Assembly (NCBI RefSeq): GCF_018885265.1
Contig: NZ_CP076538.1
Location: 1,462,001 to 1,526,000, forward strand
Source: Amycolatopsis aidingensis
GTDB taxonomy: Bacteria > Actinomycetota > Actinomycetes > Mycobacteriales > Pseudonocardiaceae
Direction: 5' to 3'
DNA: 64,000 nucleotides
In this document: positions 48,703 to 63,566 of the stretch, one piece after another
Layout: every line of letters begins with the position of its first letter
Position numbering within the stretch: position 1 is the stretch's first letter
The notes under the pieces: model-generated
Seen by the model: only the letters and a program-made list of their open reading frames with translations
The model's database searches: none
Told to the model about the DNA's origin: nothing
Translations under genes and position numbers: made by a program

Positions 48703-48776
48703 GCCCCCGTAGCCCAACCGGCAGAGGCGGTCGACTTAAAATCGACGCAGTGCGGGTTCGAATCCCGTCGGGGGCA
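48703..48776 (+). tRNA. tRNA-Leu-like, anticodon TAA, short variable arm
   Basis: 74-nt cloverleaf: acceptor GCCCCCG/CGGGGGC, D-arm GCCCAACCGGCAGAGGC, anticodon stem GTCGA/TCGAC around loop CTTAAAA (anticodon TAA), variable GCAGT, T-arm GCGGG-TTCGAAT-CCCGT. The anticodon reads UUA (Leu). The short class I variable loop is unlike ordinary leucine tRNAs (85 nt or more with a long arm), including bldA. Identity is therefore uncertain. A recombinase relic abuts its 3' end. Confidence 0.8.
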
Positions 48777-48778
48777 CG

Positions 48779-49140
48779 TACAGCATCTACACTCTCGGCG
48801 CCCGCTCGCTGAGCAGGCGTTCCGGGTGCAATCGGCACGACTTCGGTGGCGCCTTCCGTTGCCCGGGTGATCTGGAACAACCGGCGCAGCAGTACCTCCG
48901 GTGCGTGGGCAAGGCTGACTGCGAGGTACGGCGGCAGGTCCAGCAGGGCGGTGTCCTCGGGACTGGGCAGGCCTGGCTCCACCTCGCCTGCGGCGTCCAA
49001 CTCCGTGAGTGCGGACTCCCGGCGCCGCGCGAGATCGGCGACCACGATCTCGCGTCGACGGGGCCCGGATACCCGGTCCGCGAAGAAGTCGGGACACGGC
49101 GTCCAGGATGGCGTCTTCGTGAAGGTGCATAGAGACCGTC
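48779..49140 (-). pseudogene. C-terminal remnant of a large serine recombinase
   Basis: Minus strand, decaying. TVSMHLHEDAILDAVSR lies in one frame; shifting by one gives DFFADRVSGPRRREIVVADL, matching the HEDAILDAVSRFFADRVFGPDRR region of actinomycete recombinases. A deletion follows, then ALTELDAAGE and LLDLPPYLAVSLAHAPEVLLRRLFQIT. The remaining frame runs into the tRNA. So a frameshift, an internal deletion and loss of the N-terminal catalytic half are all visible. From 49141 to 49336 nothing else is recognisable. Confidence 0.7.
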
Positions 49141-49336
49141 AGGCGCCGACACAGTCGAGATAAGAAGCCCCGTGTCCGGCTTCCGGGAACTCTACGCGCG
49201 GGCTGGCTGATCATGCGCACTTTGGGGACGCGAAAAAGATCGTCGTCCTCAGATGCGCGGAATCGTGAGTGGGCGACGGTCGGCGGTTCGTGTGCTAGTC
49301 TGCCCGGCTGGAGGGCACGTTTCGAGCGGGGGCGGT

Positions 49337-50431
49337 ATGTCGGGATTCGTCGCTGAGCCGGATGCGATTACCAGCTATGGCAGGATGGTCGCGGCCCACT
49401 CGCAGTACGCCGAGCGGGCTCATCTGTATGGTGCGCAAGAGGCGCACGTGGATGACAAGAGTATCGGCATCGGAGTCGACGTTTTCGGCGTAATCTATGG
49501 CGCGCACTATGAAGCACAAGGACAGGTCTGTGAGGCGGTGCGGCGCCTGGGTTTTCTCTGCCGTGACGCGGGCGCAGGTGTGCTCAAGGCCGCCGAACAC
49601 TACCGGACCACCGACGTCGCTGCGGCCGAGCGGATGGACAACACCTACCCAGGTACGGATAGCCGACCAGTGCCGATGGGGCCGCCCGCGCGTGGCATCA
49701 AGGAGTACATCGACCCGACCGGTCGTCTGACTCCTCCTTCAGAGCCGCCGGATTTCGAAGATCCCGGTGGCATCGTGGATACGATCACTGACCTTCTCAG
49801 CCCTGGAAAGTGGATCCAGGAGGTGCTTGACGCGGTTATCGGTGTCAACCCGGTGGAAAAGTCCGTCGAAGTCTACACCGGCGACTGGAAAGCCGTAGCG
49901 AAGGCGGCCAGTGCCTTTCACTGCCTTTCCTATTTCTGTGCGGACACGAGTCGTAACATCGGCGACAACATGGCACTTCTGCGGGACACGTACTGGCAGG
50001 GGCATGCGGCCGCCGCCGCGGACAGCTATTTTTCCGGCTTGGCGACCGCCCTCGACAGCTACCGTGAAGGTTGTGCGAAACTCCGCGACGAGTACGGCAA
50101 GATGGCCACTGGTATAGCGGGTCTGACCAAGTCGGGAACGGATGCGGTTACGGACGTCATGGACAATGCGTTCTGGGCGGCGCTCGAGGTGGCGGCTGGG
50201 ACTGTGTTGAGTGAGACTGTGATTGGTCCTGCTCTTTTGTGGTCATTGGCGGCCTTCCAGTGCAGTCGAATAGTGGAGCGCTGGTCTGACGCGACCGCCA
50301 GCTTTGAGAAGGCGAAGCATATCGCTCACACATTCAACGGAGTTGTGGCGATCGTGACGGCCGACGATTCGTTTTTCAAAGGTCATCCGCTTCCCAGTGC
50401 GGCATACAGTCATCCGGCGGTAGGGGAGTAG
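49337..50431 (+). CDS. WXG100-like ESX substrate candidate (second module)
   Basis: 364 residues without Sec signal. Helical throughout: an N-terminal helical unit (about 5-100), a Pro-rich spacer (about 110-150), and a WXG-like hairpin centred on DTYWQGHAAAAADSYFSGL. Then comes a hydrophobic Gly/Ala stretch (about 285-310) that could insert in a membrane. Same design as the gene at 4496: helical unit, spacer, W-x-G turn, long tail. Base composition is less GC-biased than the core genes. Two bases before the next gene. Confidence 0.65.
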   Translation: MSGFVAEPDAITSYGRMVAAHSQYAERAHLYGAQEAHVDDKSIGIGVDVFGVIYGAHYEAQGQVCEAVRRLGFLCRDAGAGVLKAAEHYRTTDVAAAERMDNTYPGTDSRPVPMGPPARGIKEYIDPTGRLTPPSEPPDFEDPGGIVDTITDLLSPGKWIQEVLDAVIGVNPVEKSVEVYTGDWKAVAKAASAFHCLSYFCADTSRNIGDNMALLRDTYWQGHAAAAADSYFSGLATALDSYREGCAKLRDEYGKMATGIAGLTKSGTDAVTDVMDNAFWAALEVAAGTVLSETVIGPALLWSLAAFQCSRIVERWSDATASFEKAKHIAHTFNGVVAIVTADDSFFKGHPLPSAAYSHPAVGE

Positions 50432-50433
50432 GC

Positions 50434-50853
50434 ATGAACTTCGAATGGTCGTCCTCCGCGAGCACCTTCGGCGAGTCTGGCGGGAATCCCGCGCTGCACA
50501 AACATCGGCGGGAGCTGCTGGAGAAGCTCGCGAGCAACCGCACCAACCCCGCGCTCGCCGAGATGGCGAGGGGGTTGCTCAGCGGAAGGACCACGCCACG
50601 GCAGGTCATCGCGTCCGGTGCCTACGACGAGTTACTCGCGCCGCATGTTCGGCAGTTCACTTCCTGGTACACGTCACTTTCGGAAGACGAGAAGGAAGCA
50701 GCGGCGCAACGAGGGCAGGAGCATCTGGACAACCTCGCTCGCCGGGACGCACCACGAGCACAACCTGCCCGGGAGTCTCCGGAGACTCGGAGACCGGCCG
50801 CGCGCGGCGACGAGGAGCCGTCGTACGACGAGACCGATTGGACCTCGGAATGA
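50434..50853 (+). CDS. small hydrophilic ESX-module protein, unknown function
   Basis: 139 residues; helical N-terminal two-thirds (HRRELLEKLASNRTNPALAE, SWYTSLSEDEKEAAAQ) and an acidic disordered tail ending DETDWTSE. No signal or membrane segment. It starts two bases after the WXG-like gene and overlaps the next by ATGA. Its place and composition parallel the 4039-4503 protein of the first ESX module, although sequence similarity is not obvious. Confidence 0.7.
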   Translation: MNFEWSSSASTFGESGGNPALHKHRRELLEKLASNRTNPALAEMARGLLSGRTTPRQVIASGAYDELLAPHVRQFTSWYTSLSEDEKEAAAQRGQEHLDNLARRDAPRAQPARESPETRRPAARGDEEPSYDETDWTSE

Positions 50854-51224
50854 GCCCTTCGTCTTTTCTTGGGCCGCCGGACAACGAGGATGACTTCGGT
50901 ATCGATCCGAATGCCAATCGACCCGGGGCAACGCGGGACGCGTCCGGCAAGACCTTCCGGGAGAGCTTCCTCAGCGACTGGAGATTTTACTCCTCGCTTG
51001 TCTTCCTATCCGGTATTTTTCTCATCTTCTGCATCGGTGGCGTGGCCGTGCGGGGGAATCCGTTGCCCCTGCTCCCGGCCGGTGCGTTCGTCGTCGCGCT
51101 GTACTCGCTGTGGCGGTTGCGCACTGTGGCCACGCACCGCCAGCTCACGGTGTACGGCTGGCTGGCGGGCGGGGGCACTATCAGCGGTCTCGCCCTGATA
51201 GCCCTCATCGTGCGGTGGCTGTGA
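50850..51224 (+). CDS. small membrane protein of the ESX module
   Basis: 124 residues. Hydrophilic N-terminus (about 1-45) then three hydrophobic segments (SLVFLSGIFLIFCIGGVAV, LLPAGAFVVALYSLW, GGGTISGLALIALIVRWL). ATG overlaps the previous stop. Third gene of a tight operon, probably functioning with the two upstream proteins. No family recognised. Confidence 0.7.
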   Translation: MSPSSFLGPPDNEDDFGIDPNANRPGATRDASGKTFRESFLSDWRFYSSLVFLSGIFLIFCIGGVAVRGNPLPLLPAGAFVVALYSLWRLRTVATHRQLTVYGWLAGGGTISGLALIALIVRWL

Positions 51225-51230
51225 GCACCG

Positions 51231-51335
51231 TCAGCTCAGGACACCGTGCCCGCCCCGGGGGTGGTTATTGCGCACCGCGATCCGACCATCGTCCAGGATA
51301 GCGACCACCTGCGCGGCCTTTTCCCACCCGAGCCC
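51231..51335 (-). pseudogene. possible DUF397 remnant
   Basis: Minus-strand reading gives WEKAAQVVAILDDGRIAVRN then NHPRGGHGVLS and a stop. The V.ILDDGRIAVRN..P core resembles the middle of actinomycete DUF397 proteins, which normally partner XRE regulators. No start and no ends of the domain remain. The rest of the gap up to 51385 is featureless. Confidence 0.3.
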
Positions 51336-51385
51336 TGACCCACTTCGCCGACCACGGCATCCCACGGGGTCGAGCGGTTATGATC

Positions 51386-52117
51386 TCACGGTCCGACCTT
51401 CATCCTGCGTTCCAGCAAGTACTCGTAGAACGGCATCTCCTGCTCGTAGAAATCGGCCAGCACCGGGTGGTTTTCCACGGTGTTTTCGTATGCTTTTTCA
51501 GACTTGACGAAACCGTTGCTGTTACCGGCTTCGGCGTGCCAGCGAGCGGTTTTCGACCATTCCTGTGGCATGCCTGCCGACCAGTTCAGCGTATCCGGTC
51601 TGTGCGTAAGGCCGACCCGTTCGTTGTATGCCCGCACGGTCGGCTCCGGCTGCTCCAGCAGTAGGTCGGAGTCGACCACGATCGGCTCACGTCCAGTGGC
51701 CGCGGCAACCGCGAGGTAGAGTTCGTACAGTCGGGAGAATCCGATCTCGGGCAGCGTGACGTTCGGGTTCATCGCGAAATGTGAGGGGATCACCTCGCGT
51801 GGATGTCTGATGATGAAGGTGTGTTCGACCTCGCGTAGGAACTCGGCATCGGCAAGCACACCGGGGTAGCGGAAGTCGGTGGTGTCCTTGAAGAACACCC
51901 GGCTTTCCGTGCCAAGGTCTTTGATGGCGGCGATCAGCTCCGGCTCTGATTTCACCTCCCGGTCGGCCACCGTGCAGGTGCCGAAGTCGGCGAGCTGGCA
52001 GAACGGCTCGTGCAATGCCACGATATCATCGCGTTCCATCATCATTCGCAGGAATGCCGTCGAGCGCGAACGCGGCGCGCTCCATAGCGCTATCACGCGC
52101 TTGGGGTCAGTATTCAC
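51386..52117 (-). CDS. PAPS-dependent sulfotransferase
   Basis: 243 residues. 5'-phosphosulfate loop ALWSAPRSRSTAFLRMM near the N-terminus and the 3'-phosphate motif IIRHPREVIPS (about 100) identify a sulfotransferase-family protein that moves sulfate from PAPS to an acceptor, usually a hydroxyl or amine. GTG start. It lies 57 bp after the LysE gene on the same strand. The APS kinase domain encoded at 55131-58640 could supply its donor, so both are probably in one pathway. Confidence 0.85.
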   Translation of the reverse strand: MNTDPKRVIALWSAPRSRSTAFLRMMMERDDIVALHEPFCQLADFGTCTVADREVKSEPELIAAIKDLGTESRVFFKDTTDFRYPGVLADAEFLREVEHTFIIRHPREVIPSHFAMNPNVTLPEIGFSRLYELYLAVAAATGREPIVVDSDLLLEQPEPTVRAYNERVGLTHRPDTLNWSAGMPQEWSKTARWHAEAGNSNGFVKSEKAYENTVENHPVLADFYEQEMPFYEYLLERRMKVGP

Positions 52118-52174
52118 CTGATCAAAGGTACTGCCAATGGCGCATCGGGCGAAAGTGGGAATTGTCAGCCGCGG

Positions 52175-52801
52175 TCAGTCGATGGCGACCTTGGCCGCCA
52201 GGCCGAGGAACACCACCCCCGCCAACCGGTTCAGCCATTTCTCGGTCCGGTCGTCCTTGCGCAACCAGTCCCCGACCCGGCCACTTGCCAGCGCGACCAC
52301 GCTGTCCACCAGCAGGCCCATGATCACGAATGTCACGCCGAGCACAAGTAGCTGCATGGTGCTGTTGCCCTGCTCCGGACGGACGAACTGGGGCAGGAAC
52401 GCCAGGTAGAACACCACGATCTTGGGGTTGAGCACGTTGGTGATGATGGCGCGCTGGAAAACCGTCGACAGCGGCAACCGTTCCCCGGTGGTGAGCTGGG
52501 TGCCGCCCGCTCGCCAGGAGTCGATCAGGGTTCGCACGCCGAGGTAACCCAGGTACACCGCGCCCGCATAACGCAGCACGTCGTAGGCGATGGGGGAGGA
52601 GCTGACCAGGGTGGCAAGGCCCAGCACGACCGCGGTGGTGTGCACCAGCATGCCAACGGACATACCGACCGAGGCGAGCAGGCCCGCGCGGACGCCCTGG
52701 CTGACGGCGTTCGTCACGATGTAGACCATGTCCGCCCCGGGGACGACGCATATTAGCAGCACGGCGCCAAGGAACAACAGGTATGAGTCCAGGTCGATCA
52801 T
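52175..52801 (-). CDS. LysE/RhtB family amino-acid exporter
   Basis: 208 residues, five or six membrane segments. Typical N-terminal LLICVVPGADMVYIVTNAVSQG, the GAVYLGYLGVRTL segment, and NPKIVVFYLAFLPQF. Exports amino acids or derivatives. Divergent from the aldo/keto reductase and upstream of the sulfotransferase, so it may export the product of the local pathway. ATG at 52801. Confidence 0.9.
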   Translation of the reverse strand: MIDLDSYLLFLGAVLLICVVPGADMVYIVTNAVSQGVRAGLLASVGMSVGMLVHTTAVVLGLATLVSSSPIAYDVLRYAGAVYLGYLGVRTLIDSWRAGGTQLTTGERLPLSTVFQRAIITNVLNPKIVVFYLAFLPQFVRPEQGNSTMQLLVLGVTFVIMGLLVDSVVALASGRVGDWLRKDDRTEKWLNRLAGVVFLGLAAKVAID

Positions 52802-52803
52802 GG

Positions 52804-52838
52804 GTACAATATACTGGAAAACATAATTCAGTACAATA
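52804..52838. promoter_or_regulatory. repeats in the LysE/AKR divergent promoter
   Basis: GTACAATA occurs twice (52804-52811 and 52831-52838) and TACTG/CAGTA forms an inverted repeat between them (52812-52816, 52829-52833). The 66-bp gap is strikingly AT-rich for this genome. Likely a regulator site and promoters for both genes; no regulator gene is adjacent. Confidence 0.45.
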
Positions 52839-52867
52839 AACTAAATTGGCAGCGGAAGGGTGAAAGC

Positions 52868-53851
52868 ATGCGGTACCGCCGGTTCGGCAGGCTTGACTGG
52901 CAGGTCAGTGAGGTCGGCTATGGGATGTGGGGAATAGGTGGAGGCGAAGGCGGTTGGACCGGTGCGGACGATGAGAGCGGAATGCAGTCACTGCAGCTGT
53001 CCGTCGACCTGGGTTGCACCTTCTTCGATACGGCTTGGATTTACGGCCGCGGGCACAGCGAGCGACTGCTCGGCGAGTTGCTGCGGGCTAACCAGGACAA
53101 GCAGCTCACCATCGCCACCAAGATCCCGCCGAAGGACCGGAACTTCCCTTCAACCAGAGAGTCGAGGCTGGAGGACGTCTTCCCGGCCGATCATATCTGG
53201 GAATACACCGAGAAAAGCCTGGAAAACCTCGGCACCGGCAGCGTGGACCTGCTGCAGTTCCATGTCTGGGAGGACGCATGGGCCGATGACGAGCGCTGGC
53301 AGGAACCGGTCCGGGAGCTCAAGCGGCAGGGTCTGGTCAAAGGCGTCGGTATCAGCATCAACCGCTGGGAACCAACCAATGTGCTCAAGGCACTGAAAAC
53401 GGGCCTGATCGACTCGGTACAGGTGATCTACAACGTGTTCGACCAGAACCCGGAGGACGAGTTGTTCCCGGTGTGCCGGGACCAGGACATCGCGGTGATC
53501 GCACGGGTACCGTTCGACGAGGGGACGTTGACCGGCACGCTTACCAAAGACAGCACCTGGCCGGAAGGGGACTGGCGCAACAGCTATTTCGTCCCGGAGA
53601 ACCTGCACCCGGCGGTGGAACGCGCGGACCGGCTCAAGGAGCTGGTGCCGGACGGGATGACCCTGCCGGAACTGGTGCTGCGCTTCATCCTGGGCAACCC
53701 GGCCGTGTGCACCGTGATCCCGGGAATGCGCAAGGAGAAGCACGTCCGCGCCAACCTGGGAGTCAGCGACGGCACCGAGCTTCCCGCCGACCTCCTGGCC
53801 ACCCTGCGCACCCACCGCTGGGACCGGGAACCCACCTGGTGGTCCCAGTGA
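52868..53851 (+). CDS. aldo/keto reductase
   Basis: 327-residue TIM-barrel NADPH-dependent reductase. Catalytic tetrad visible: Asp and Tyr in FFDTAWIYGRG, Lys in IATKIPP, His in LLQFHVWED. GGAAGGG precedes the ATG. A carbonyl-reducing role is expected; next to a thioester-reductase NRPS it could turn the released aldehyde into an alcohol. Convergent with the ArgG-like gene; a strong hairpin separates them. Confidence 0.88.
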   Translation: MRYRRFGRLDWQVSEVGYGMWGIGGGEGGWTGADDESGMQSLQLSVDLGCTFFDTAWIYGRGHSERLLGELLRANQDKQLTIATKIPPKDRNFPSTRESRLEDVFPADHIWEYTEKSLENLGTGSVDLLQFHVWEDAWADDERWQEPVRELKRQGLVKGVGISINRWEPTNVLKALKTGLIDSVQVIYNVFDQNPEDELFPVCRDQDIAVIARVPFDEGTLTGTLTKDSTWPEGDWRNSYFVPENLHPAVERADRLKELVPDGMTLPELVLRFILGNPAVCTVIPGMRKEKHVRANLGVSDGTELPADLLATLRTHRWDREPTWWSQ

Positions 53852-53862
53852 CCGGCTGAGAT

Positions 53863-53897
53863 CGGGTAGCCGGAGGGATCCGCCCTCCGGCTACCCG
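53863..53897. terminator. bidirectional hairpin terminator
   Basis: CGGGTAGCCGGAGGG (53863-53877), loop ATCCG, CCCTCCGGCTACCCG (53883-53897): a perfect 15-bp stem between the convergent AKR and ArgG-like genes. Confidence 0.75.
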
Positions 53898-53910
53898 GCC
53901 GCGGCGGCTC

Positions 53911-55077
53911 TCAGGTCTGGACATGCCAGGCGTGGCCGCCGTTGGTGAACCGGGTCTGGCGCTCAGCGCCGGGGACATCGGCGACCTCGCTGACCCCGTT
54001 CACGATCACATTCCCCTTGTACAGGTTCACCTCGACCGTTCCGCTGGCCCGCTCGGTCAGCAGGTCCGCCGCGCTACGAGCGGCCAGTGCGGCAGGCTCG
54101 GTCAGCCTGCCTTCGTAGGTGTACCGGCCCAGCCGCTGGAACAGCTGCCTTGCCAGCTCGGTGCCCTCCTTGTCCAGGGTGGTCTGGTAAAGCGCGTTCA
54201 GGCACTGCCCGAGTACCTCAAGCCCTGGTGCCTCGTACACGCCACGGCACTTGGTGCCGTTGACCCGGTTCTCCACCACGCTGCGGAGCGAGATTCCGTT
54301 GCGCCTACCCGCAGCGTTCGCGGTCAGGATGGCCTGGACCGGATCCACGGGACTGCCGTTGATCTCCACCGGACGCCCGCCGGTGAACCGTACCCGGAAG
54401 GCCTCGACGGCGTCCTCGACCTGCTGCGGCCAGCTGGTCAGGATCGGCGAGACCACATCCGAGCGGGTGTCCAGGTCCTCGAGCTCGCCGCTCTCATGGG
54501 AGTATCCACCGAGGTTCCCGTCCACCGAATAGTCGGTGTAGTCGGCGAACACGGTCGGGTAGCCCTGTTCCAGCAGGTAGTCGGTCATCGACTCCCGGTT
54601 CGGGAAGCGTTCCAGCAGCCACGGGCGGGTCCATGGCGTGAACACGGTCAGTTCCGGCGCCAGCGCGGCGCTGTACCTGGCGAACCTCGTCTGGTCGTTG
54701 CCGCCGCCGACACAGCCGTGCACCAGCACCGCGCACCCGTCCTTACGCAGCTCATCCGCAAGGCCCTCGACCAGAACGCGGCGGGCCGCGCCGGTGGTGT
54801 TCCAGTATCCGCCCTCATAGGTTGCCTGGTATCTGATCAGGTCAAGGTAGACCGTCGCCATCTCCGCGCGCAGGTCGATCACCCGGTTTTCCAGGCCCAT
54901 CTTCCCGAACAGCTCGGACAGCTCGGCAGGGCCGAATGGGGTGTCCTGGCCGATATCGGCGATATACGACACGGTCTGCACGCCGTTGTCCGCCAGCCAG
55001 GCTCCGATCGTGGTCGCGGAGAGCCCGCCGGAAGCCAGTACGCCCACCCGCTTTTCGCGTAGTTCGGTCAAGTCCAT
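53911..55077 (-). CDS. argininosuccinate synthase-like ligase (divergent ArgG)
   Basis: 388 residues from the ATG at 55077 (GGGAG upstream). It follows ArgG from end to end: GNDQTRF (Asp/citrulline region), YSVDGNLGG followed by SHESGELED, ENRVNGTKCRGVYEAPGLEVL, and SGTVEVNLYKGNVIVNG. The ATP PP-loop, normally SGGLDTS, is SGGLSAT, so the invariant Asp is replaced; GxTGKGND has become GCVGGGND. This argues for changed substrate use or activity rather than arginine synthesis. It follows the NRPS-like gene by 53 bp on the same strand. Confidence 0.8.
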   Translation of the reverse strand: MDLTELREKRVGVLASGGLSATTIGAWLADNGVQTVSYIADIGQDTPFGPAELSELFGKMGLENRVIDLRAEMATVYLDLIRYQATYEGGYWNTTGAARRVLVEGLADELRKDGCAVLVHGCVGGGNDQTRFARYSAALAPELTVFTPWTRPWLLERFPNRESMTDYLLEQGYPTVFADYTDYSVDGNLGGYSHESGELEDLDTRSDVVSPILTSWPQQVEDAVEAFRVRFTGGRPVEINGSPVDPVQAILTANAAGRRNGISLRSVVENRVNGTKCRGVYEAPGLEVLGQCLNALYQTTLDKEGTELARQLFQRLGRYTYEGRLTEPAALAARSAADLLTERASGTVEVNLYKGNVIVNGVSEVADVPGAERQTRFTNGGHAWHVQT

Positions 55078-55130
55078 ATGCGCTCCCGTTCGGAGAGTAG
55101 ATGCTGACTCGCGTCCGGGCCCCGAGCGGC

Positions 55131-58100
55131 TCATGGCCGCACCCGGTCCATCACCAGGGAATAAACGGCGTTCACAGATTCGTCGATCGTCTGCGTATGG
55201 GTCGGAAGGACGACGTCCGCTTCGGTCGGCGGTTCGTATGGATCGTCCACACCGGTCAGGCCGCGCAGCTCGCCTGCGCGTTGCTTCGCATAGAGGCCCT
55301 TCACGTCACGCTTGCTGCAGGCCAGCACCGGCGCGGCCACGTAGACCTCGGCGAAGTCGATATCGCTGTTGAGGTGCTGGGCTCGTACCCGTTCCCGGTC
55401 GGCCGTGTACGGCGCGATCACCGGAACCAGCGTGATCACGCCGTGCATCGAGAGCATCGAAGCGACGAACCCGATCCGCCGCACGTTCTCCTCCCGGTCG
55501 GCGCGGCTGAAACCGAGGTCGCTGGTGAGGTTCCTGCGGATCTCGTCGCCGTCCAGCACCGCGACCCGGCGGCCCGCATCGCGCAGCAGGTTCGCAACGC
55601 CGCGTGCGATCGTCGACTTGCCCGAGCTCGGCAGTCCGGTGAGCCACACGGTGATGCCGTCGCCGGGTTGCGAGGCAGGCACCGATCGCTTGGCGCCGAG
55701 CGCGTAGCTGTGGAACACGTCGGTTCCGACCGGGACCGGGGCCAGCCCGTTGTGCCGGGCCACCCTTTCCGCACGCTCGGCCGGACAACGGCTGGACAGC
55801 TCCGAGAACAGCATCGGCAGGTCGGGCTCGGAAGCAGGCAGCATGGTCAGCACCCTGGCGACATCCCGGTCGTCCTCCGCGGCGGAACGCACCCGATCCA
55901 GGAAGTCCGGATAGGACACATCCGCCAGATCGAAGACCTTTCGAAACGCGTCGAGCACGTCATCGAGCCTGGTTGGTTCCTGCTGCCGGAGGTGGAAGTA
56001 ACCGGTCTCGCCACCGTTCACCGCGGCCAGCACCAGTTCCGACGCATGATCCACCGGCAGGTAGTCCAGTGCGACCTCACTGCGGAACGTCACCCCGGCC
56101 CGCACGCATGCGCGAACCAGCAGGTCGATCAGTCCATCCCGGCTGGGCACACCGTGCCGGGTATGCGGCATGACCTCGCCGAGCCGGTAGACCGCGACCG
56201 GCAGTCCGCGTTCGGCCGCCGCGTCCATCAGCCACTCGCCGACCAGCTTGGACTGGCTGTAGCCGTCGTCCGGACGGCTGGTCGCGGGCGCGGGCGCCTC
56301 GACCCCACCGTCCGGCAGCACGGTCAGGGTGGAGACGAAGTGCACCGGCTTGGTGTGCCCGGTGCTCGCCAGCCGCAGGATCTCGGTCGTGCCGGACACA
56401 TTGGCCGCCCGGTGCGCGGCATACTCACGCACCAGGTTCACCATCGCGCCGTTGTGCAACACCGTATCCACCACTGCGGCCAGGCGCTGGTACTCGCTTT
56501 CGGCCAGGCCCAACCGGGGTGCGCCGAGGTCTCCGGGCACGGCCACCACCCGGTGCGCCAGCTCCGGGGCCCACAGGCGGTACGCGCGCAGGTTGGCCAT
56601 GATTCTCGCCTGCGCCGCCGCCCGATCCTCGGCCCGGACCAGGCAATGCACCACGGCATCGGTGCCGCGCAACAGATCGTGCAGCAACTGGCCACCGACA
56701 AAACCGGTGGCGCCGGTGAGCAGCACGTTCCGTGGCGAGCCCGGTGCCGTCGTGGGCGCGGCCGGACGGATGTCCGCCGGCAGCATCGCGTCCTGTGCCA
56801 TCTCCTCGAAGGTGGACACGACTTCGCGCTCACCGCGGATCCGTGCGGCCTGGCCTGCGATGGTCGGGCAATGCACCAGGTCCCGTACGGTGAACCTGGT
56901 GCCGAAGCGCGCGTTCAACGCCAGGGCGAGCTTCTGTGCGGTCAGCGAGTCACCGCCGATGCGGAAGAAGTTGTCGTCCGCTCCGATCCGGACGCCGGGA
57001 ACCTGGCGGTGCCAGAGCTCCTGCACCTCGCGTTCCACGCCATGCAGGTCGGCGACCGCGGCGTCCGGGGTTCCGGCCATCGCGGCCAGCGCCAGCCGGT
57101 CGGTCTTGCCGTTCGGGGTCAACGGCATCCGGTCCAGTAGCACGAACCGTTTGGGCAGCAGGTAGGGCGGCAGCGCGCCGCGGGCGTGTTCCCGAACGAG
57201 TGCGTCGGTGACTGCGTTGTCGCAGGTCAGGTACGCTATCAGACTCCGGTTGCCCAGCTCGTCGTGCACGATCACCTTGGCCTCGCGTACGCCGGGATGG
57301 GCTTGCAGCACGAGTTCGATCTCGGACAGCTCGACTCGCACGCCGCCGATCTTGATCTGCTGATCCGAGCGTCCCTCGAATACCAGGTTGCCGTCGGTGC
57401 GCCAGCTGCCGTGGTCGCCGGTGCGGTACAGCTTCGCGCCCGGAATCTCCGGGAACGGATTGTCGACAAAGGCATTTGCCGTGCGCTCGGGGTCGTTGAG
57501 GTAACCGAGCCCGAGGCAGTCGCCGCCGATATGGATCTCGCCGACCGTCCCCGGCGGGACCAGTTCACCGTCCTCGTCGAGGACGACCACGTAGGTGTTG
57601 TCGATGGGCCTGCCGACCGGGATGGACTCCCGGTCGCTGTCGGTCACCGTATGGAACACCGAGCCAATCGAGCATTCGGTGGGCCCGTAGGTGTTCACGA
57701 TCCGTACTCCGGGCAGCATCGCCCGGAAATGCTGCACGGCGCGGGTGTTGATCTCCTCGCCGCCGATCAGGATGGTGCGCAGCGAAGCCAGCCGCGGCAC
57801 CAGTTCTGGTTCGGCGGCCGCCAGCTCCACCAGGGTGTTGAAAATCGAGGGCACGAAGTCGGTCATCGTCACGCCGTATCGCCAGACGGTGTCGATGGTG
57901 GCCGAAAGGTCCAGCACACCGTCGCGACGCGGAACCACGACCCGCGCGCCGTTGGTCAGCGGCCACAGCAGCTGCCATATCGAGGAATCGAACACATGCC
58001 TGCTGTTCTGCATCACCACCTCGTCGGCATGTCCGCCGAACCGCCTGGTCATGTACAGAAACCGGTTGAGCAGGCCACGGTGTATGTTCAGGGTGCACTT

Positions 58101-58640
58101 GGGAGCTCCGGTCGACCCCGAGGTGTAGAAGCCGTAGATCAGGTCGGTCATCCCTGCGGGGGCGCCGAAGTCGGCTTGCGGCCGCTCGGGCAGGGCGGCC
58201 GCGTCCACCGTGAGCCGCAGCCCCTCGGGCACCGCGTCCGCACGCGCTTCGGCGCCGTACAGCACGACCTTGGGGCGCAAGGTTTCGATCATTCCCGTCA
58301 GCCGGTTCGCCGGCCACAGGTCGTCGATCGGCACGAACGGCGCGCCCAGCTTCATCAGCGCGATGACGGACACCGGCAGGTCGAGTCCATTACGTACGAC
58401 GAGCGGAACGAAGTCGCCCCGGCCGACGCCCCGGGCGCGCAGCGTATCGGCGAGCGCGTTGGCACGCCGGTCCAGCGCCTGGTAGGACAGCGTCGCGTCC
58501 CCGAACGTGACGGCGGGGGACTCGGGGACCCGTGCCGCCTGTTCTTCGAATAATTGCAGAATTGTCCGGTTGGTTGGATATGGCTGAGCGTGGCCGCAGA
58601 ACTCGTTGAGTAGCTGCGCGCGGACTTCTGTTTTCACCAT
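55131..58640 (-). CDS. A-T-R nonribosomal synthetase fused to APS kinase
   Basis: 1169 residues, ATG at 58640 after GAGGGG. Domains: adenylation (about 20-510; YTSGSTGAPK, VFDSSIW, NTYGPTE, YRTGDHGS, GRSDQQIKIGGVRVE, PNGKTDR); carrier domain with GGDSL, Ser565; short-chain-type thioester reductase (about 636-980; LLTGATGFVGGQLL, YSQSKLVGEWL); and a complete APS kinase (about 990-1169; GLPSSGKST with Lys1008, DGDEIRRNL, GFSRADREENVRR, KRDVKGLYAKQRAGELRGLTG). There is no condensation domain, so one amino acid is activated, tethered and released by reduction to an aldehyde. The kinase would make PAPS. The predicted specificity pocket has Asp235 and Asp at position 278, suggesting but not proving a basic substrate. 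Signal and membrane segments are absent. Confidence 0.93.
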   Translation of the reverse strand: MVKTEVRAQLLNEFCGHAQPYPTNRTILQLFEEQAARVPESPAVTFGDATLSYQALDRRANALADTLRARGVGRGDFVPLVVRNGLDLPVSVIALMKLGAPFVPIDDLWPANRLTGMIETLRPKVVLYGAEARADAVPEGLRLTVDAAALPERPQADFGAPAGMTDLIYGFYTSGSTGAPKCTLNIHRGLLNRFLYMTRRFGGHADEVVMQNSRHVFDSSIWQLLWPLTNGARVVVPRRDGVLDLSATIDTVWRYGVTMTDFVPSIFNTLVELAAAEPELVPRLASLRTILIGGEEINTRAVQHFRAMLPGVRIVNTYGPTECSIGSVFHTVTDSDRESIPVGRPIDNTYVVVLDEDGELVPPGTVGEIHIGGDCLGLGYLNDPERTANAFVDNPFPEIPGAKLYRTGDHGSWRTDGNLVFEGRSDQQIKIGGVRVELSEIELVLQAHPGVREAKVIVHDELGNRSLIAYLTCDNAVTDALVREHARGALPPYLLPKRFVLLDRMPLTPNGKTDRLALAAMAGTPDAAVADLHGVEREVQELWHRQVPGVRIGADDNFFRIGGDSLTAQKLALALNARFGTRFTVRDLVHCPTIAGQAARIRGEREVVSTFEEMAQDAMLPADIRPAAPTTAPGSPRNVLLTGATGFVGGQLLHDLLRGTDAVVHCLVRAEDRAAAQARIMANLRAYRLWAPELAHRVVAVPGDLGAPRLGLAESEYQRLAAVVDTVLHNGAMVNLVREYAAHRAANVSGTTEILRLASTGHTKPVHFVSTLTVLPDGGVEAPAPATSRPDDGYSQSKLVGEWLMDAAAERGLPVAVYRLGEVMPHTRHGVPSRDGLIDLLVRACVRAGVTFRSEVALDYLPVDHASELVLAAVNGGETGYFHLRQQEPTRLDDVLDAFRKVFDLADVSYPDFLDRVRSAAEDDRDVARVLTMLPASEPDLPMLFSELSSRCPAERAERVARHNGLAPVPVGTDVFHSYALGAKRSVPASQPGDGITVWLTGLPSSGKSTIARGVANLLRDAGRRVAVLDGDEIRRNLTSDLGFSRADREENVRRIGFVASMLSMHGVITLVPVIAPYTADRERVRAQHLNSDIDFAEVYVAAPVLACSKRDVKGLYAKQRAGELRGLTGVDDPYEPPTEADVVLPTHTQTIDESVNAVYSLVMDRVRP

Positions 58641-59066: not shown

Positions 59067-60275
59067 ATGCGTCGGACATTGGTGCTGATCACGGTCTTGA
59101 TCTTGTCGGGTTGTAGCATAAAAGACAGTACTTCCCATGGCTCGGATGAGTTCCGTATCGTGCCGGTTTCGTCGATCGGCCCGGAAGGAAAGGTCTCCTC
59201 GATCGACGCCGGGCGGAAACCCGACCGGGCGGAGGGCCTGGAGCAGGCAGCGGATCCGGGCGGAGACGGCAAGGCGACCTGCGAGCCGAGGAGCATCGCG
59301 GTGGCAGGCGCGATGACCGGCCCGGACGCGGCCTGGGGCCAGAGCATCCGATCCTCGGTGCGGATGGCGATCGACCGGCACAATCAGCACAATCCGGACT
59401 GCCAGGTGACACAGCGGAACTTCGACACCGAAGGCGATCCGCAGAAGGCCACCCAGGTCATCCCCGGCATCGTCAACGACGAGTCGATCATCGGTATGGT
59501 CGGACCTTTGTTCTCAGGGGAGAACAAAGCCACCGGCCAGGTGCTGAGCGAGGCAGGCCTGGTCTCGCTCAACTCCTCGGCGACCAATGTGTCGTTGTCG
59601 AAGAACGGCTGGCGGACCTTCTTCCGCGGCCTGGCCAACGATGATGTGCAGGGGACGGCCGTGGGCAGGTACCTGGCCGGCACGGCCGGGTACGGCTCGG
59701 TTTGTGTCGTTTCGGAAGACTCCGACTACGGTGCGGGCCTCGCCGAAGCGGTGCGGGAGGCCCTTGGCGCGGCCGACGAGGCCGCCTGCTCGGCCAGCAT
59801 CAAGAAGGGCGACAAGGACTTCTCGGCGGTGGTCTCGAAGATCAAGGCCGCAGGTCCGGACGCGGTGTTCTTCGCAGGTTTCTACGCCGAGGCGGCGTTG
59901 CTGGCTCGCCAGCTCGAGGACGGCGGGAGCACGGCCAGGTTCGTGACGGGCGACGCGGCCAACAACCAGCAGTTCGTCACCCAGGCCGGGGACGCCGCCG
60001 AAGGTGCCATTCTGACCTGCCCATGCGAACCGATCCCGGACTGGTTCGTGGCTGACTACACCGAGCACAACGGCCACCCACCCGGGCTCGCCTCGGTCGA
60101 GGCGTACGACCTGACGACGATCCTTCTCGAGGGCATTGACGCGGGTAGCACGACCCGTGCCGAACTGCTCGACTTTGTGGCTTCCTACCGGGGAGACGGC
60201 ATCGCCCGGACCTACGAATGGGACGAGAAAGGGGAACTCGTGTCCGCCCGGATCACGATGTACGAGGTCAAGTAG
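59067..60275 (+). CDS. branched-chain amino acid-type ABC substrate-binding lipoprotein
   Basis: 402 residues. Signal peptide with lipobox LILSGC (Cys16), a linker to about 70, then a Peripla_BP_6 (LivJ-type) two-lobe fold: IAVAGAMTGPDAAWGQSIRS, MVGPLFSGENKATGQVL, VCVVSEDSDYGAGLAEAV and DAVFFAGFYAEAALLARQL. It binds an amino-acid-like ligand outside the membrane and delivers it to the following permeases. Divergent from the NRPS-like operon. Confidence 0.88.
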   Translation: MRRTLVLITVLILSGCSIKDSTSHGSDEFRIVPVSSIGPEGKVSSIDAGRKPDRAEGLEQAADPGGDGKATCEPRSIAVAGAMTGPDAAWGQSIRSSVRMAIDRHNQHNPDCQVTQRNFDTEGDPQKATQVIPGIVNDESIIGMVGPLFSGENKATGQVLSEAGLVSLNSSATNVSLSKNGWRTFFRGLANDDVQGTAVGRYLAGTAGYGSVCVVSEDSDYGAGLAEAVREALGAADEAACSASIKKGDKDFSAVVSKIKAAGPDAVFFAGFYAEAALLARQLEDGGSTARFVTGDAANNQQFVTQAGDAAEGAILTCPCEPIPDWFVADYTEHNGHPPGLASVEAYDLTTILLEGIDAGSTTRAELLDFVASYRGDGIARTYEWDEKGELVSARITMYEVK

Positions 60276-60284
60276 GACAGCACC

Positions 60285-61277
60285 TTGATCGACTTCAACA
60301 TCGCGGGCCTTGCCGAGGGCTTCTGGCAGCTGACCATCGACGGGCTGAGCTACGGTGCGATCTACGCGCTGGTCGCGGTCGGCTACACACTCGTCTATGG
60401 CGTGGTGCGGCTCATCAACTTCGCCCACGCCGAGATCTTCATGCTGGGCATGTTCGGCCAGTACGCCGGTTTGCTGCTGCTGGGTTTCCGGCCGAGCGGC
60501 AACAGCTACGACCTGGGGACGGTCGCGACGGTCGGCTATCTCGCGGCGGCGATGCTGCTGGGTATGGCCGTCGCGGGCGCGGCGGCGGTCGGCCTGGAAC
60601 GGGTCGCCTACCGGCCGTTACGCAAACGCGGCGCCGATCGGCTGGCCTTCCTGATCAGCGCGGTCGGCATGTCCTTCGTCCTGCAGGAACTGGTGCATCT
60701 GGTGCTGCCCCAGCTGTGGCCCTCGCTCGGTGGCGCCGATGCGCAACAGCCGATCCGGCTGGTCGAGCAGACCGGGCAGTTCCGGATCTTCTCCGGGACG
60801 GTCACCAACCTGACCCTGGTGATCGTCGTGATCGCCGTGGTGTTGACGGCAGGCACCCAGCTGCTGCTCGACCGCACCAGACTCGGCCGTGGCATCCGGG
60901 CGACCGCGCAGGACCCGGAAACCGCCACCCTGATGGGCGTGTCCAGGGAACGGGTCATCATGCTGACCTTCCTGATCGGTGGGGTGCTGGCCGGAGCCGC
61001 GGCACTGCTGTACACACTGAAGATCCCGTCCGCGATCGTCTACTCCGGCGGGTTCCTGCTGGGAATCAAGGCCTTCACCGCCGCCGTACTCGGCGGCATC
61101 GGCAACGTACGTGGTGCCCTGCTCGGGGGGTTGCTGCTGGGCCTGCTGGAACTGTACGGCCAGGTGCTTTTCGGGGCGGAGTGGCGCGATGTCGTCGCGT
61201 TCGTGGTGCTGGTCGCGGTGTTGATGTTCCGGCCAACCGGGATTCTGCGGGAGAGCCTCGGGAAGGTGCGAGCATGA
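60285..61277 (+). CDS. LivH-type ABC transporter permease
   Basis: 330 residues, about eight membrane segments. LivH hallmarks: GLSYGAIYALVAVGYTLVYGVVRLINFAHAE at the N-terminus and ATAQDPETATLMGVSRERVI in the coupling region. TTG start at 60285, ten bases after the binding-protein gene. A TTA codon at 60618-60620. Its stop overlaps the next start (ATGA). Confidence 0.9.
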   Translation: MIDFNIAGLAEGFWQLTIDGLSYGAIYALVAVGYTLVYGVVRLINFAHAEIFMLGMFGQYAGLLLLGFRPSGNSYDLGTVATVGYLAAAMLLGMAVAGAAAVGLERVAYRPLRKRGADRLAFLISAVGMSFVLQELVHLVLPQLWPSLGGADAQQPIRLVEQTGQFRIFSGTVTNLTLVIVVIAVVLTAGTQLLLDRTRLGRGIRATAQDPETATLMGVSRERVIMLTFLIGGVLAGAAALLYTLKIPSAIVYSGGFLLGIKAFTAAVLGGIGNVRGALLGGLLLGLLELYGQVLFGAEWRDVVAFVVLVAVLMFRPTGILRESLGKVRA

Positions 61278-62374
61278 CCGGCACGGTCAGGACGTGGCCG
61301 CGACCGCTGCGCTGGGCCATGGCGGTGCTCGGGGTGGCCGCGCTGGCGGTACTGCCTATGTTCCCGCCGCCGTTGCTGGACACCCCTGGCACCTCGTTCT
61401 CCTGGGTGATGGCGCAGGTCGCGATGATCGCGCTGGTCGGGCTCGGGCTCAACGTCGTGGTCGGCCAGGCCGGGTTGCTGGACCTGGGATATGTCGGGTT
61501 CTATGCCGTCGGCGCCTATACGGTCGCGTTGCTGACCAGTTCGGAAAGCCCGTGGCACGCCGGTGGCCTGTTCGCATCGGGTTGGGCCTGGTTGGCGGCC
61601 CTGCCCCTGGCGGCGGCGATCACGGCGGTGTCCGGATTGCTGCTGGGCATGCCGACGCTGCGGCTACGCGGGGACTACCTGGCCATCGTCACGCTGGGGT
61701 TCGGAGAGATCGTGCGGCTGCTGGCCGAGAACCTCTCCGAGGTCACCAACGGCAGCCGCGGCCTGCGGGAGATCGCCTATCCGAACGTGGGGGCCTCGGC
61801 GGAGCGGCCGGAGGGCTACTTCGCCGCCGGTAACGTGATCGGCCCGATCGACGCCGGAGTGGCGTGGTTCTGGCTCGGGCTCGGGCTGATCCTCCTGGTG
61901 CTGGTGCTGGCCGGCAACCTGGAGCGCAGCCGGGTCGGCAGGGCGTGGATCGCGATCAGGGAGGACGAGGAGGCCGCCGAGATCATGGGGGTGCCCACGT
62001 TCCGGTTCAAGGTGTGGGCCTTCGTGGTCGGCGCGGCGCTGGGCGGGCTGTCCGGGGCGATCTACGCCGGGCAGGTGCAGTTCGTGAACCCGACGAACTT
62101 CAACATCATCAACTCGATGCTGTTCCTGTGCGCCGTCATCATCGGTGGCCGAGGCAACAAGTTCGGGGTGATCGTCGGCGCCTTCCTGATCGTGTACCTG
62201 CCGAACCGGTTCATGTCGGTCGAGCTGGGCGGGCAGCCGCTCGGGGACTACAAGTACCTGTTCTTCGGGATCGTGCTGGTGGCGTTGATGGTGTTCCGGC
62301 CGCAGGGTGTGCTCCCTGCACGCCGGGTCAGGTTGTGCTATCGGCCAGCAGATGATTCCGAACCACGTCGATGA
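61274..62374 (+). CDS. LivM-type ABC transporter permease, abnormal 3' end
   Basis: 366 residues, about nine to ten membrane segments; LGLNVVVGQAGLLDLGYVGFYAVGAYT, LRLRGDYLAIVTLGFGEI, and the coupling helix AIREDEEAAEIMGV. The last 15 residues (RVRLCYRPADDSEPRR) are unlike LivM tails and are read on the opposite strand of the convergent LysE gene, which overlaps by 47 bp. LivG and LivF ATPase genes, normally next, are absent. A rearrangement has probably joined this end to the LysE gene; an ATPase encoded elsewhere may still serve it. Confidence 0.85.
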   Translation: MTGTVRTWPRPLRWAMAVLGVAALAVLPMFPPPLLDTPGTSFSWVMAQVAMIALVGLGLNVVVGQAGLLDLGYVGFYAVGAYTVALLTSSESPWHAGGLFASGWAWLAALPLAAAITAVSGLLLGMPTLRLRGDYLAIVTLGFGEIVRLLAENLSEVTNGSRGLREIAYPNVGASAERPEGYFAAGNVIGPIDAGVAWFWLGLGLILLVLVLAGNLERSRVGRAWIAIREDEEAAEIMGVPTFRFKVWAFVVGAALGGLSGAIYAGQVQFVNPTNFNIINSMLFLCAVIIGGRGNKFGVIVGAFLIVYLPNRFMSVELGGQPLGDYKYLFFGIVLVALMVFRPQGVLPARRVRLCYRPADDSEPRR

Positions 62375-63008
62375 CGAGGAATCCGGCCAGTCCGCCGTAT
62401 ACCCCGGCGGAGAGCCGGTCCAGCAGCACGCGGACCCTGGAGCGCAGCAGCACCCAGTCCCTTACCGCACCGGCCGCATAGCCGACCGCGAGATCGGAGA
62501 GCAGCCCGAGCGCCTGCAGGACCACCCCGAGCATGAGCAGCTGGAAGACCGGGTTCGCCGTGGCCTCGCCGAGAAACTGGGGCAGGAAGGCCGTGAAGAA
62601 GAGCATGATCTTCGGGTTGGACAGATTCACCAGGAAGCCGCGCCGGAACACCCGCGCGGGCGCGGCGGATGCGGTCACCGGCGACCCGCTGGACCGCCAG
62701 GTCGTCCACGCGAGATAAGCCAGGTAGGCCGCGCCTGCCAGGCGGATCGCGTCGGCCGCGCTCGGCGCCGCGGCAAGGAAAGCGCCGAGCCCGAGTGCGG
62801 TGAGGATGACGTACACGCTCACGCCCGCGGTGATGCCGAAGGCCGCCAGGGTTGCCGCCCGCCTGCCGCCACCGAGGCCCGTGGCGATCATGAAGGCCAT
62901 GTCCGGGCCCGGCGCCAGCAGGATGACCATGACGGCGATGAGGAAGGCCGGAAGCACGCTGACGTCGATCAAGGTGTAACCGGTTGCCATGGGTCCGGAG
63001 GTTAGCAT
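62328..63008 (-). CDS. LysE/RhtB family exporter (second copy in window)
   Basis: 226 residues from the ATG at 63008 (GGAG seven bases upstream; ATG 62990 is the alternative). Six membrane segments: LIAVMVILLAPGPDMAFMIATGL, GAAYLAYLAWTTWR, NLSNPKIMLFFTAFLPQF. Exporter for amino acids or derivatives. Divergent from the CGNR gene, a common pairing that suggests control by it. The 3' end overlaps the LivM gene. Confidence 0.88.
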   Translation of the reverse strand: MLTSGPMATGYTLIDVSVLPAFLIAVMVILLAPGPDMAFMIATGLGGGRRAATLAAFGITAGVSVYVILTALGLGAFLAAAPSAADAIRLAGAAYLAYLAWTTWRSSGSPVTASAAPARVFRRGFLVNLSNPKIMLFFTAFLPQFLGEATANPVFQLLMLGVVLQALGLLSDLAVGYAAGAVRDWVLLRSRVRVLLDRLSAGVYGGLAGFLVIDVVRNHLLADSTT

Positions 63009-63050: not shown

Positions 63051-63566
63051 GTGCCTGAAGTCCCTGTGCTCGAGATGCGCGGCCTCGTCCAGTTGGTGAA
63101 CGAGTACGCTGACCGCCCGCGCGTCGTCAGCGGGGAGCGGGACATGCCCTATCCCGAGATCGCCGGTATCGCAGGCGTGCCCGCGGACCTGGCCGCCATG
63201 CCCCCGCGCGAGCTGGTGCCGGCGGCGAACGAGGCATACCGGGTCTTCTCCGCCGCACCGGAAGGGCACGCCCTGGAGGCATTGAACAGGCTCCTGCGGT
63301 CCACCGCTCCGGCACCGGTCGCGACGGAGCACGGTACCCGCTGGTCGGTCCGGGCGCCGTGGCACGTGCTACCCGGCGCCATGGCGATCTGCCTGCTCGA
63401 CTGGCTCGGCGCGCACGGGCAGCACCGGCTCGGCCTGTGCCACGCCGCGAACTGCACCGACGTCTACGCGGATGCCTCCCCTGCGGGGCGCAGGAGGTTC
63501 TGCTCCCCGACCTGCCTGAACCGGCACAAGGTCGCCGCGTATCGCAGCAGGTCGAAACGGCGGTAG
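63051..63566 (+). CDS. CGNR zinc-finger (ABATE-type) regulator
   Basis: 171 residues, GTG start. N-terminal helical ABATE-like ligand region, then a C-terminal zinc finger: LGLCHAANC, later FCSPTC, followed by LNRHKVAAYRSR. The first Cys pair fits the CGNR family with altered spacer residues (CHAANC). Probable DNA-binding stress-responsive regulator of the divergent LysE exporter. Confidence 0.82.
   Translation: MPEVPVLEMRGLVQLVNEYADRPRVVSGERDMPYPEIAGIAGVPADLAAMPPRELVPAANEAYRVFSAAPEGHALEALNRLLRSTAPAPVATEHGTRWSVRAPWHVLPGAMAICLLDWLGAHGQHRLGLCHAANCTDVYADASPAGRRRFCSPTCLNRHKVAAYRSRSKRR

What the first reader, a model, noticed from the sequence alone, without database searches (positions are those of the whole stretch)
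55131..58640. Single protein joining NRPS A-T-R modules to an APS kinase
The sequence shows an intact adenylation-carrier-thioester reductase assembly continuous in frame with a full APS kinase (P-loop GLPSSGKST, DGDEIRRNL, KRDVKGLYAK). I know of no described NRPS with a PAPS-producing kinase. Fusion implies that reductive release of an amino acyl group and PAPS supply belong to one pathway, perhaps with sulfation of the nascent product.
Basis: partly seen in the sequence, partly recalled or inferred. Interest (0 to 1): 0.92.

Follow-up and report, generated by a model that had tools for sequence, protein, structure and literature searches.

The report
Reductase-type NRPS carrying built-in sulfate kinase
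One bacterial protein both activates and reduces an amino acid and appears to make the sulfate donor PAPS, beside genes for an aldehyde reductase and a sulfotransferase, so it probably starts a small pathway to a sulfated amino alcohol; a peptide synthetase with a built-in PAPS kinase was already known from sulfazecin, so this is a new variant rather than a new kind.

Summary
Observation confirmed. Window 58640-55131 (-) is one stop-free 1169-aa frame: adenylation, carrier, thioester reductase and a complete APS kinase. It is not an assembly error: an independent protein, P0002 (71% identical), has the same order. Five close relatives stop after the reductase; for one (P0007) a separate APS kinase comes from a contig of the same length, so the kinase was probably fused from a neighbouring gene. 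Neighbours are an argininosuccinate-synthase-like protein, an aldo/keto reductase, a LysE exporter and a sulfotransferase. At 11 other loci of this A-T-R family the aldo/keto reductase is found in 9 and the sulfotransferase in 5; two of those five also hold sulfate-activation genes. Best reading: amino acid to amino aldehyde to amino alcohol to sulfate ester, with PAPS made on the synthetase. Substrate, product and all activities are untested. An A-T-R-kinase protein was not seen in the listings of six paper searches. New variant of a known kind.

The parts
55131..58640 (-). A-T-R-APS kinase fusion, 1169 aa (A about residues 31-512, T about 540-601, R about 638-940, kinase about 994-1169)
   Evidence: Pfam and NCBIfam hits over cut-off; stop-free frame; same architecture in P0002
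55134..55661 (-). APS kinase domain inside the fusion
   Evidence: PF01583 190.6 bits; aligns over its length to solved APS kinase 5cb6, the DGD and KGLYAK segments identical and the P-loop GKS/T retained; clade with separate APS kinases P0241-P0244 and P0279, support 97/99, bootstrap not settled
53911..55077 (-). Argininosuccinate-synthase-like protein, 388 aa (a longer 407-aa frame starts at 55134; ATG 55077 preceded by GGGAG is the likelier start)
   Evidence: PF00764 and PF20979; TIGR00032 244 bits, under its 268 cut-off; SGGLS in place of SGGLD; start context
52868..53851 (+). Aldo/keto reductase, proposed to reduce the released aldehyde to the alcohol
   Evidence: PF00248 172 bits; 60-71% identical copies near A-T-R genes elsewhere
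52175..52801 (-). LysE-type amino-acid exporter
   Evidence: PF01810 138 bits
51386..52117 (-). Sulfotransferase (Sulfotransfer_5), proposed to transfer sulfate from PAPS
   Evidence: PF19798 45.9 bits, cut-off 23.2; 40-53% identical copies at 5 other A-T-R loci
48703..48777 (+). tRNA-Leu (taa) at whose 3' end conserved synteny stops; left edge of the variable region that holds the cluster
   Evidence: ARAGORN; DNA similarity to two same-genus relatives ends at 48777 and 48787

Best explanation
The protein is a single-module, reductively releasing NRPS fused to an APS kinase; it probably starts a short pathway to a sulfated amino alcohol. Proposed steps: (1) the A domain adenylates one amino acid and loads it on the carrier; (2) the R domain releases it with NAD(P)H as the amino aldehyde; (3) the neighbouring aldo/keto reductase reduces it to the amino alcohol; (4) the C-terminal kinase turns APS from the cell's CysD/CysNC into PAPS; (5) the neighbouring sulfotransferase moves sulfate from PAPS to the alcohol; (6) the ArgG-like enzyme modifies the molecule further by adenylating a carbonyl oxygen, and a LysE carrier may export the product. 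Shown here: the domains, conserved motifs, gene neighbourhood, recurrence of parts of the set in unrelated genomes, and the separate-gene state of the kinase in relatives. Inferred: every reaction, their order, the substrate and the product.
For: Complete domains with conserved motifs: GGDSL in T, TGATGFVG and YxxxK in R, P-loop, DGD and KGLYAK in the kinase. AKR in 9 of 11 other A-T-R loci examined, sulfotransferase in 5 of 11. G093 carries sulfotransferase, AKR, ArgG-like, A-T-R, CysD and CysNC; G373 the same with a CysN cut by the contig end; G011 has a CysNC end 1.5 kb upstream of A-T-R, with a PLP-enzyme-like gene between. The host genome has two CysD-CysNC pairs and a normal ArgG elsewhere, so the cluster copies are additional. 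Specificity code DSWDLGTIGK in 56 of 64 aligned homologs, the window's included (positions placed by recalled motif anchoring). Equal source-contig lengths link A-T-R with ArgG-like in 13 cases and ArgG-like with a separate APS kinase in 2 (indirect, and rows were partly added because a match had been noticed).
Against: No substrate or activity is known. The sulfotransferases at other loci are only 40-53% identical; the window's one has no sequence match in the PDB at E <= 1 and its model is weak (pLDDT 55.6). In 6 of the 11 loci no sulfotransferase was found in the stretch held (G011's contig ends too soon to tell), so sulfation is not part of every pathway of this family. ArgG-like was found in only 2 of the 11. 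No AKR was found at G065 (its A-T-R lies at the end of its contig) or Embleya. The code is identical in only 2 of 9 more distant loci, G093 and G373; the other 7 differ at two positions, so these relatives, three of them with a sulfotransferase, may use other substrates. In the window AKR lies on the opposite strand to the other cluster genes.
Confidence: 0.5

Rival explanations
1. Sulfation happens on the carrier-bound aminoacyl group (N- or side-chain O-sulfation in trans, as SulN does in sulfazecin), and the sulfated residue is then released by the R domain.
For: SulN N-sulfonates a carrier-bound tripeptide with PAPS, in a cluster whose SulI contains an adenylylsulfate kinase (PMC11298585 passages); kinase, carrier and R share one chain here.
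Against: A-T-R and AKR occur together without a detected sulfotransferase in the G085, G496, G560 and Tistrella stretches, so reduction does not seem to depend on prior sulfation.
Confidence: 0.22
2. The kinase domain only adds general PAPS or balances APS, and the fusion has no pathway meaning.
For: PAPS diffuses freely; APS kinase also occurs in other fusions (for example CysNC in this genome).
Against: Two CysD-CysNC pairs exist elsewhere in the genome; two separate relatives of this kinase come from contigs of the same length as contigs with other cluster genes; a sulfotransferase is close by.
Confidence: 0.13
3. The kinase-like domain phosphorylates another substrate, such as a pathway alcohol, not APS.
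For: The phaseolotoxin cluster also contains a gene annotated adenylylsulfate kinase, phtS (PMC3639832 passage), whose substrate is not stated in that passage.
Against: Alignment along the whole domain with solved APS kinases and a score above the apsK cut-off; sulfotransferase in the same cluster.
Confidence: 0.08
4. The fusion is an assembly or sequencing artefact joining two genes.
For: Close relatives have A-T-R ending where the fusion begins.
Against: No stop or ATG at the junction; the host genome is held as one contig; the same fusion in independent P0002.
Confidence: 0.02

Closest known systems
SulI of the sulfazecin (monobactam) cluster, Paraburkholderia
   Same: One NRPS protein holding an initiation module and an adenylylsulfate kinase responsible for PAPS, with a separate sulfotransferase in the same cluster (PMC11298585 passages)
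   Different: No reductase is mentioned for SulI in those passages; its pathway continues on SulM (2984 residues) and ends in a beta-lactam-forming thioesterase. The window has no frame longer than 1220 aa. SulI's sequence and domain order were not compared here
Reductively releasing NRPSs such as MxcG (myxochelin)
   Same: A-T-R order; best NCBIfam hit (579 bits over residues 70-977 of the long frame)
   Different: Score far under the equivalog cut-off of 2300; no condensation domain; kinase added
Sulfate-activating genes in natural-product clusters (AcmW/AcmB with sulfotransferase AcmK, ascamycin)
   Same: Proposed dedicated PAPS supply for one sulfotransferase (PMC9113183 passages)
   Different: Separate proteins, nucleoside substrate
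Azinomycin aziridine route
   Same: Reported precedent for a sulfate ester displaced by a neighbouring amine (PMC9570651 passage; the primary paper was not seen)
   Different: Built on a different backbone; no evidence of ring closure here
Argininosuccinate synthase and ArgG-like nitrile synthetase (PDB 9leh/9lei)
   Same: Near whole-length match to argininosuccinate synthases; weak match to the nitrile synthetase
   Different: SGGLS replaces SGGLD, and V replaces T in HGCTGKGND

Membership tests
A-T-R (reductive release) NRPS | AMP-binding, PP-binding and thioester reductase domains in this order | tested here: met
A-T-R (reductive release) NRPS | Carrier serine, GxxGxxG and YxxxK of the reductase | tested here: met
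   GGDSL, TGATGFVG, GYSQSK; motif meaning recalled
A-T-R (reductive release) NRPS | NAD(P)H-dependent release of aldehyde or alcohol | not testable with these tools
   Needs assay
APS kinase (CysC, PF01583) | Score above curated cut-offs | tested here: met
   190.6 against 21.1; TIGR00455 200.7 against 138.7
APS kinase (CysC, PF01583) | P-loop, DGD and KGLY segments retained in alignment to solved enzymes | tested here: met
   5cb6, 2gks, 2pey alignments
APS kinase (CysC, PF01583) | APS phosphorylation | not testable with these tools
   Needs assay
SulI-type NRPS with built-in APS kinase | A-T module and APS kinase on one chain, sulfotransferase in the cluster | tested here: met
   for the window; for SulI
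SulI-type NRPS with built-in APS kinase | Partner SulM (2984 residues) with beta-lactam-forming thioesterase | tested here: not met
   No frame over 1220 aa in the window; the rest of the genome was not tested for it
SulI-type NRPS with built-in APS kinase | Sequence homology and domain order of SulI | not tested
   SulI sequence was not obtained
Argininosuccinate synthase | Equivalog score | tested here: not met
   TIGR00032 244.1 against cut-off 268.2
Argininosuccinate synthase | SGGLD P-loop aspartate | tested here: not met
   S in the window's protein and in 113 of the 120 listed homologs, the window's included (4 gaps, 1 each A, P, D); the genome's own ArgG has SGGLD
PAPS-dependent sulfotransferase (PF19798) | Score above curated cut-off | tested here: met
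   45.9 against 23.2; also four relatives and L019
PAPS-dependent sulfotransferase (PF19798) | Sulfotransferase fold | tested here: inconclusive
   Weak model; the top four Foldseek hits are sulfotransferases but none has E <= 0.001
Aziridine formation by sulfate displacement | Ring-forming enzymes of the azinomycin route | not tested
   No sequences of them were obtained

The most novel reading that the evidence does not exclude
The sulfate is not decoration but chemistry: the A-T-R/AKR/sulfotransferase set makes a 2-amino alcohol O-sulfate whose sulfate is either displaced (aziridine or other azacycle formation, or attachment of a guanidine or amidine made by the unusual ArgG-like enzyme) or acts as a warhead against PLP enzymes. 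A kinase on the synthetase would then match PAPS supply to the amino alcohol, giving a portable genetic module for activating a reduced amino acid by sulfation.
Probability: 0.25. Interest if true: 0.78.

Novelty: new variant of a known kind. Interest (0 to 1): 0.52.

Why it matters
A reductase-type NRPS with its own PAPS kinase points to sulfated amino alcohols as products or intermediates. I did not search specifically for other pathways to such compounds. The recurring A-T-R/AKR/sulfotransferase set, a specificity code largely shared among the closer relatives, and a family of ArgG-like enzymes lacking the P-loop aspartate give a tractable target: five genes, directly testable in vitro, and a search handle for related clusters.

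Tried and rejected
Assembly artefact: rejected (P0002, no stop at the junction). ATGA overlap of the NRPS and ArgG-like genes, as first noted in the notebook: dropped, because the shorter start at 55077 has a better ribosome site. Clean empty site: not shown; 13-15 kb beyond the tRNA in G492 and G550 were compared with about 75 kb beyond it here, similarity stops at 48777 and 48787 and does not resume, and no repeat of the tRNA end was found. One origin of the two fusions: the kinase tree does not place the two fused domains together, but support is too low to claim two events and the bootstrap had not settled. Full-length structure: pLDDT 41, useless with 7 rows. The genome-contig scan found only 2 loci. 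A paper search for the code DSWDLGTIGK and two variants found none. Substrate assignment from the code: not made; an acidic residue at the 278 position hints at a basic or polar side chain (recalled rule), no more. Rhizobitoxine-like ether formation (PLP enzyme at L016 and by look L017 and L020, desaturase at Tistrella) was considered from recall and not tested. In one search the column 'canon' came from a wrong reading frame; the correct own ArgG is, and only the homolog counts are used. The 11 loci of the neighbourhood counts are the A-T-R hits that I followed. Left out: the 37-39% hits among L009-L015 (G027 of these was blasted as L027, no AKR or sulfotransferase) and the other 54 of 56 plasmid records, of which 8 were listed, at 33-36% identity.
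Full report
OBSERVATION. The minus-strand frame 58640-55131 encodes 1169 residues without a stop. Pfam finds AMP-binding, AMP-binding_C, PP-binding, NAD_binding_4 and APS_kinase in that order, all well above the cut-offs, and NCBIfam agrees. Carrier, reductase and kinase motifs are complete. The unfused relatives end near the point where the kinase begins, and the junction holds no ATG.

IS THE FUSION REAL. A search with residues 600-1220 scored 7989 candidates (capped) and gave 1291 proteins at E <= 0.001; among the best 120, the only ones listed, P0002 (1199 aa, 67% over the searched part, 71% in the alignment) alone covers the whole, kinase included, besides the window's own entry. The next five relatives (67-76% in the alignment) end after the reductase. 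Fusions of other order or with other reductases would not necessarily appear. A search with the kinase domain alone among proteins of matching length returned separate kinases up to 82% identical; two of them, P0241 and P0244, come from contigs whose lengths equal those of contigs with an ArgG-like relative (8810 bp) or with both an A-T-R and an ArgG-like relative (13990 bp). In a tree of 49 kinase domains the two fused ones fall with P0241-P0244 and P0279 (97/99, bootstrap not settled), apart from the seven CysNC domains included. So a cluster-associated kinase gene was probably fused to A-T-R; whether once or twice is open.

NEIGHBOURS. 53911-55077 (-) is ArgG-like; 52868-53851 (+) aldo/keto reductase; 52175-52801 (-) LysE exporter; 51386-52117 (-) Sulfotransfer_5 protein. 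The genome has a second, normal ArgG (33% identical, SGGLD) and two CysD-CysNC pairs elsewhere. The variable region starts beyond a tRNA-Leu at 48703-48777: similarity to two same-genus relatives ends there, the left-flank gene is 88-92% identical in all 11 relatives examined while the best match to the right-flank permease is only 53-63%, and G+C falls from 0.707 (1-48777) to 0.657 (51386-58640). Of 80 genomes of the genus 4, its own included, match at E <= 1e-140, the other three at 41-43% identity; in a draw of 394 genomes of the class 2, its own included, match at E <= 1e-150. Both searches scored few candidates per genome, so these are lower bounds. It looks like an accessory, probably acquired, cluster.

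THE SET ELSEWHERE. Eleven other loci of the A-T-R family were examined: G065, G093, G011, G085, G373, G496, G560, Actinomadura sp. DC4 (L016), a Streptosporangiaceae MAG (L017), Embleya sp. NBC_00888 (L048) and Tistrella mobilis pTM3 (L049). AKR is next to A-T-R, or one gene away (G093, G373, with ArgG-like between), in 9; it is partial at G011, where the contig ends, and was not found at Embleya or at G065, whose A-T-R lies at the end of its contig. The sulfotransferase is present in 5 (G065, G093, G373, L016, L017), ArgG-like in 2 (G093, G373). A tblastn of the sulfotransferase, kinase and ArgG-like protein over all these stretches gave no others; the kinase hit only G011 and G093. CysD with CysNC was seen at G093, CysD with a cut CysN at G373, and a CysNC end at G011; CysD and CysN were not searched for at the other eight. 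G085, G496, G560 and Tistrella have AKR but no detected sulfotransferase in the 18-31 kb held, which suggests that AKR acts with A-T-R, before and independently of sulfation.

SPECIFICITY. The A-domain code, placed by recalled motif anchors, is DSWDLGTIGK in 56 of 64 homologs aligned, the window's included, and in Embleya and Tistrella. In nine further loci it is identical in 2 (G093, G373) and differs at two positions in 7, the first four letters staying DSWD or DPWD. The closer relatives probably share one substrate; the more distant ones, including the sulfotransferase-bearing L016, L017 and G065, may use related but different ones.

THE ArgG-LIKE ENZYME. It matches argininosuccinate synthases over most of its length but scores below the equivalog cut-off. 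Of the 120 listed homologs, the window's included, 113 carry serine where the P-loop aspartate stands, and 119 carry valine in HGCVGGGND, where the own ArgG has HGCTGKGND. From recalled knowledge of the synthase active site, the residues kept suggest that it still adenylates a carbonyl oxygen while using a nucleophile other than aspartate (inference). An ArgG-like nitrile synthetase with a solved structure is a weak match and a reminder that this fold does other chemistry (PMC13060819, passages and reference list).

MECHANISM AND WHAT IS KNOWN. The proposed order is amino acid, amino aldehyde, amino alcohol, amino alcohol sulfate, with PAPS formed by the fused kinase from APS of the host. [quoted passage not shown] That removes the claim that an NRPS with a PAPS kinase is undescribed. 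Ascamycin has separate AcmW/AcmB proposed to serve its sulfotransferase (PMC9113183, passages). A sulfate ester used as a leaving group for aziridine formation is reported for azinomycin (PMC9570651, passage). No paper with an A-T-R-APS kinase protein stood out in the listings (0 papers; 1; 3; 4; 8; 20 of 193 listed); the library holds open-licence papers only and most listed papers were not opened.

VERDICT. Real, well delimited, new to me in its domain combination and gene neighbourhood, but a variant of a described principle. Substrate, product and every catalytic step remain to be tested.

Noticed in passing
window 59067-61277 and beyond: Branched-chain-type ABC transporter genes right of the cluster: the permease is only 53-63% identical to its best match in 11 same-genus genomes, and the own genome has a second copy at 62%, so it is probably part of the same variable region.
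   Followed up: partly
window 62328-63005 (-) and 63051-63566 (+): A second LysE-type exporter next to a CGNR zinc-finger protein.
   Followed up: no
window 49253-50853 (+): Two frames between tRNA-Leu and the cluster, in DNA of lower G+C (0.637 for 48778-51385), with no Pfam or NCBIfam match.
   Followed up: no
L022 6559-9293 and L023 6605-9402 (own genome): Two CysD-CysNC sulfate-activation pairs, one followed by a gene with a below-cut-off LysR-type (LrhA) match; one may serve another specialised pathway.
   Followed up: no
L016 8530-9687, L017 1-879, L020 3353-4504: A Cys/Met-metabolism PLP enzyme (L016 by Pfam; L017 and L020 by sequence look) stands directly before A-T-R in these loci, as if a different downstream chemistry used the same building block.
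   Followed up: partly
L049 13380-22169 (Tistrella mobilis pTM3): A-T-R and AKR followed by a fatty-acid-desaturase-like protein and an ATP-grasp protein on a proteobacterial plasmid: same A-domain code, other phylum, other partners.
   Followed up: partly
L019 and L034: A closely shared cluster with a C-A-T NRPS (82% identical), a thioesterase-like frame (by sequence look), two acyl-CoA-dehydrogenase-like proteins and an aspartate kinase beside the A-T-R/AKR/ST/ArgG-like set.
   Followed up: no
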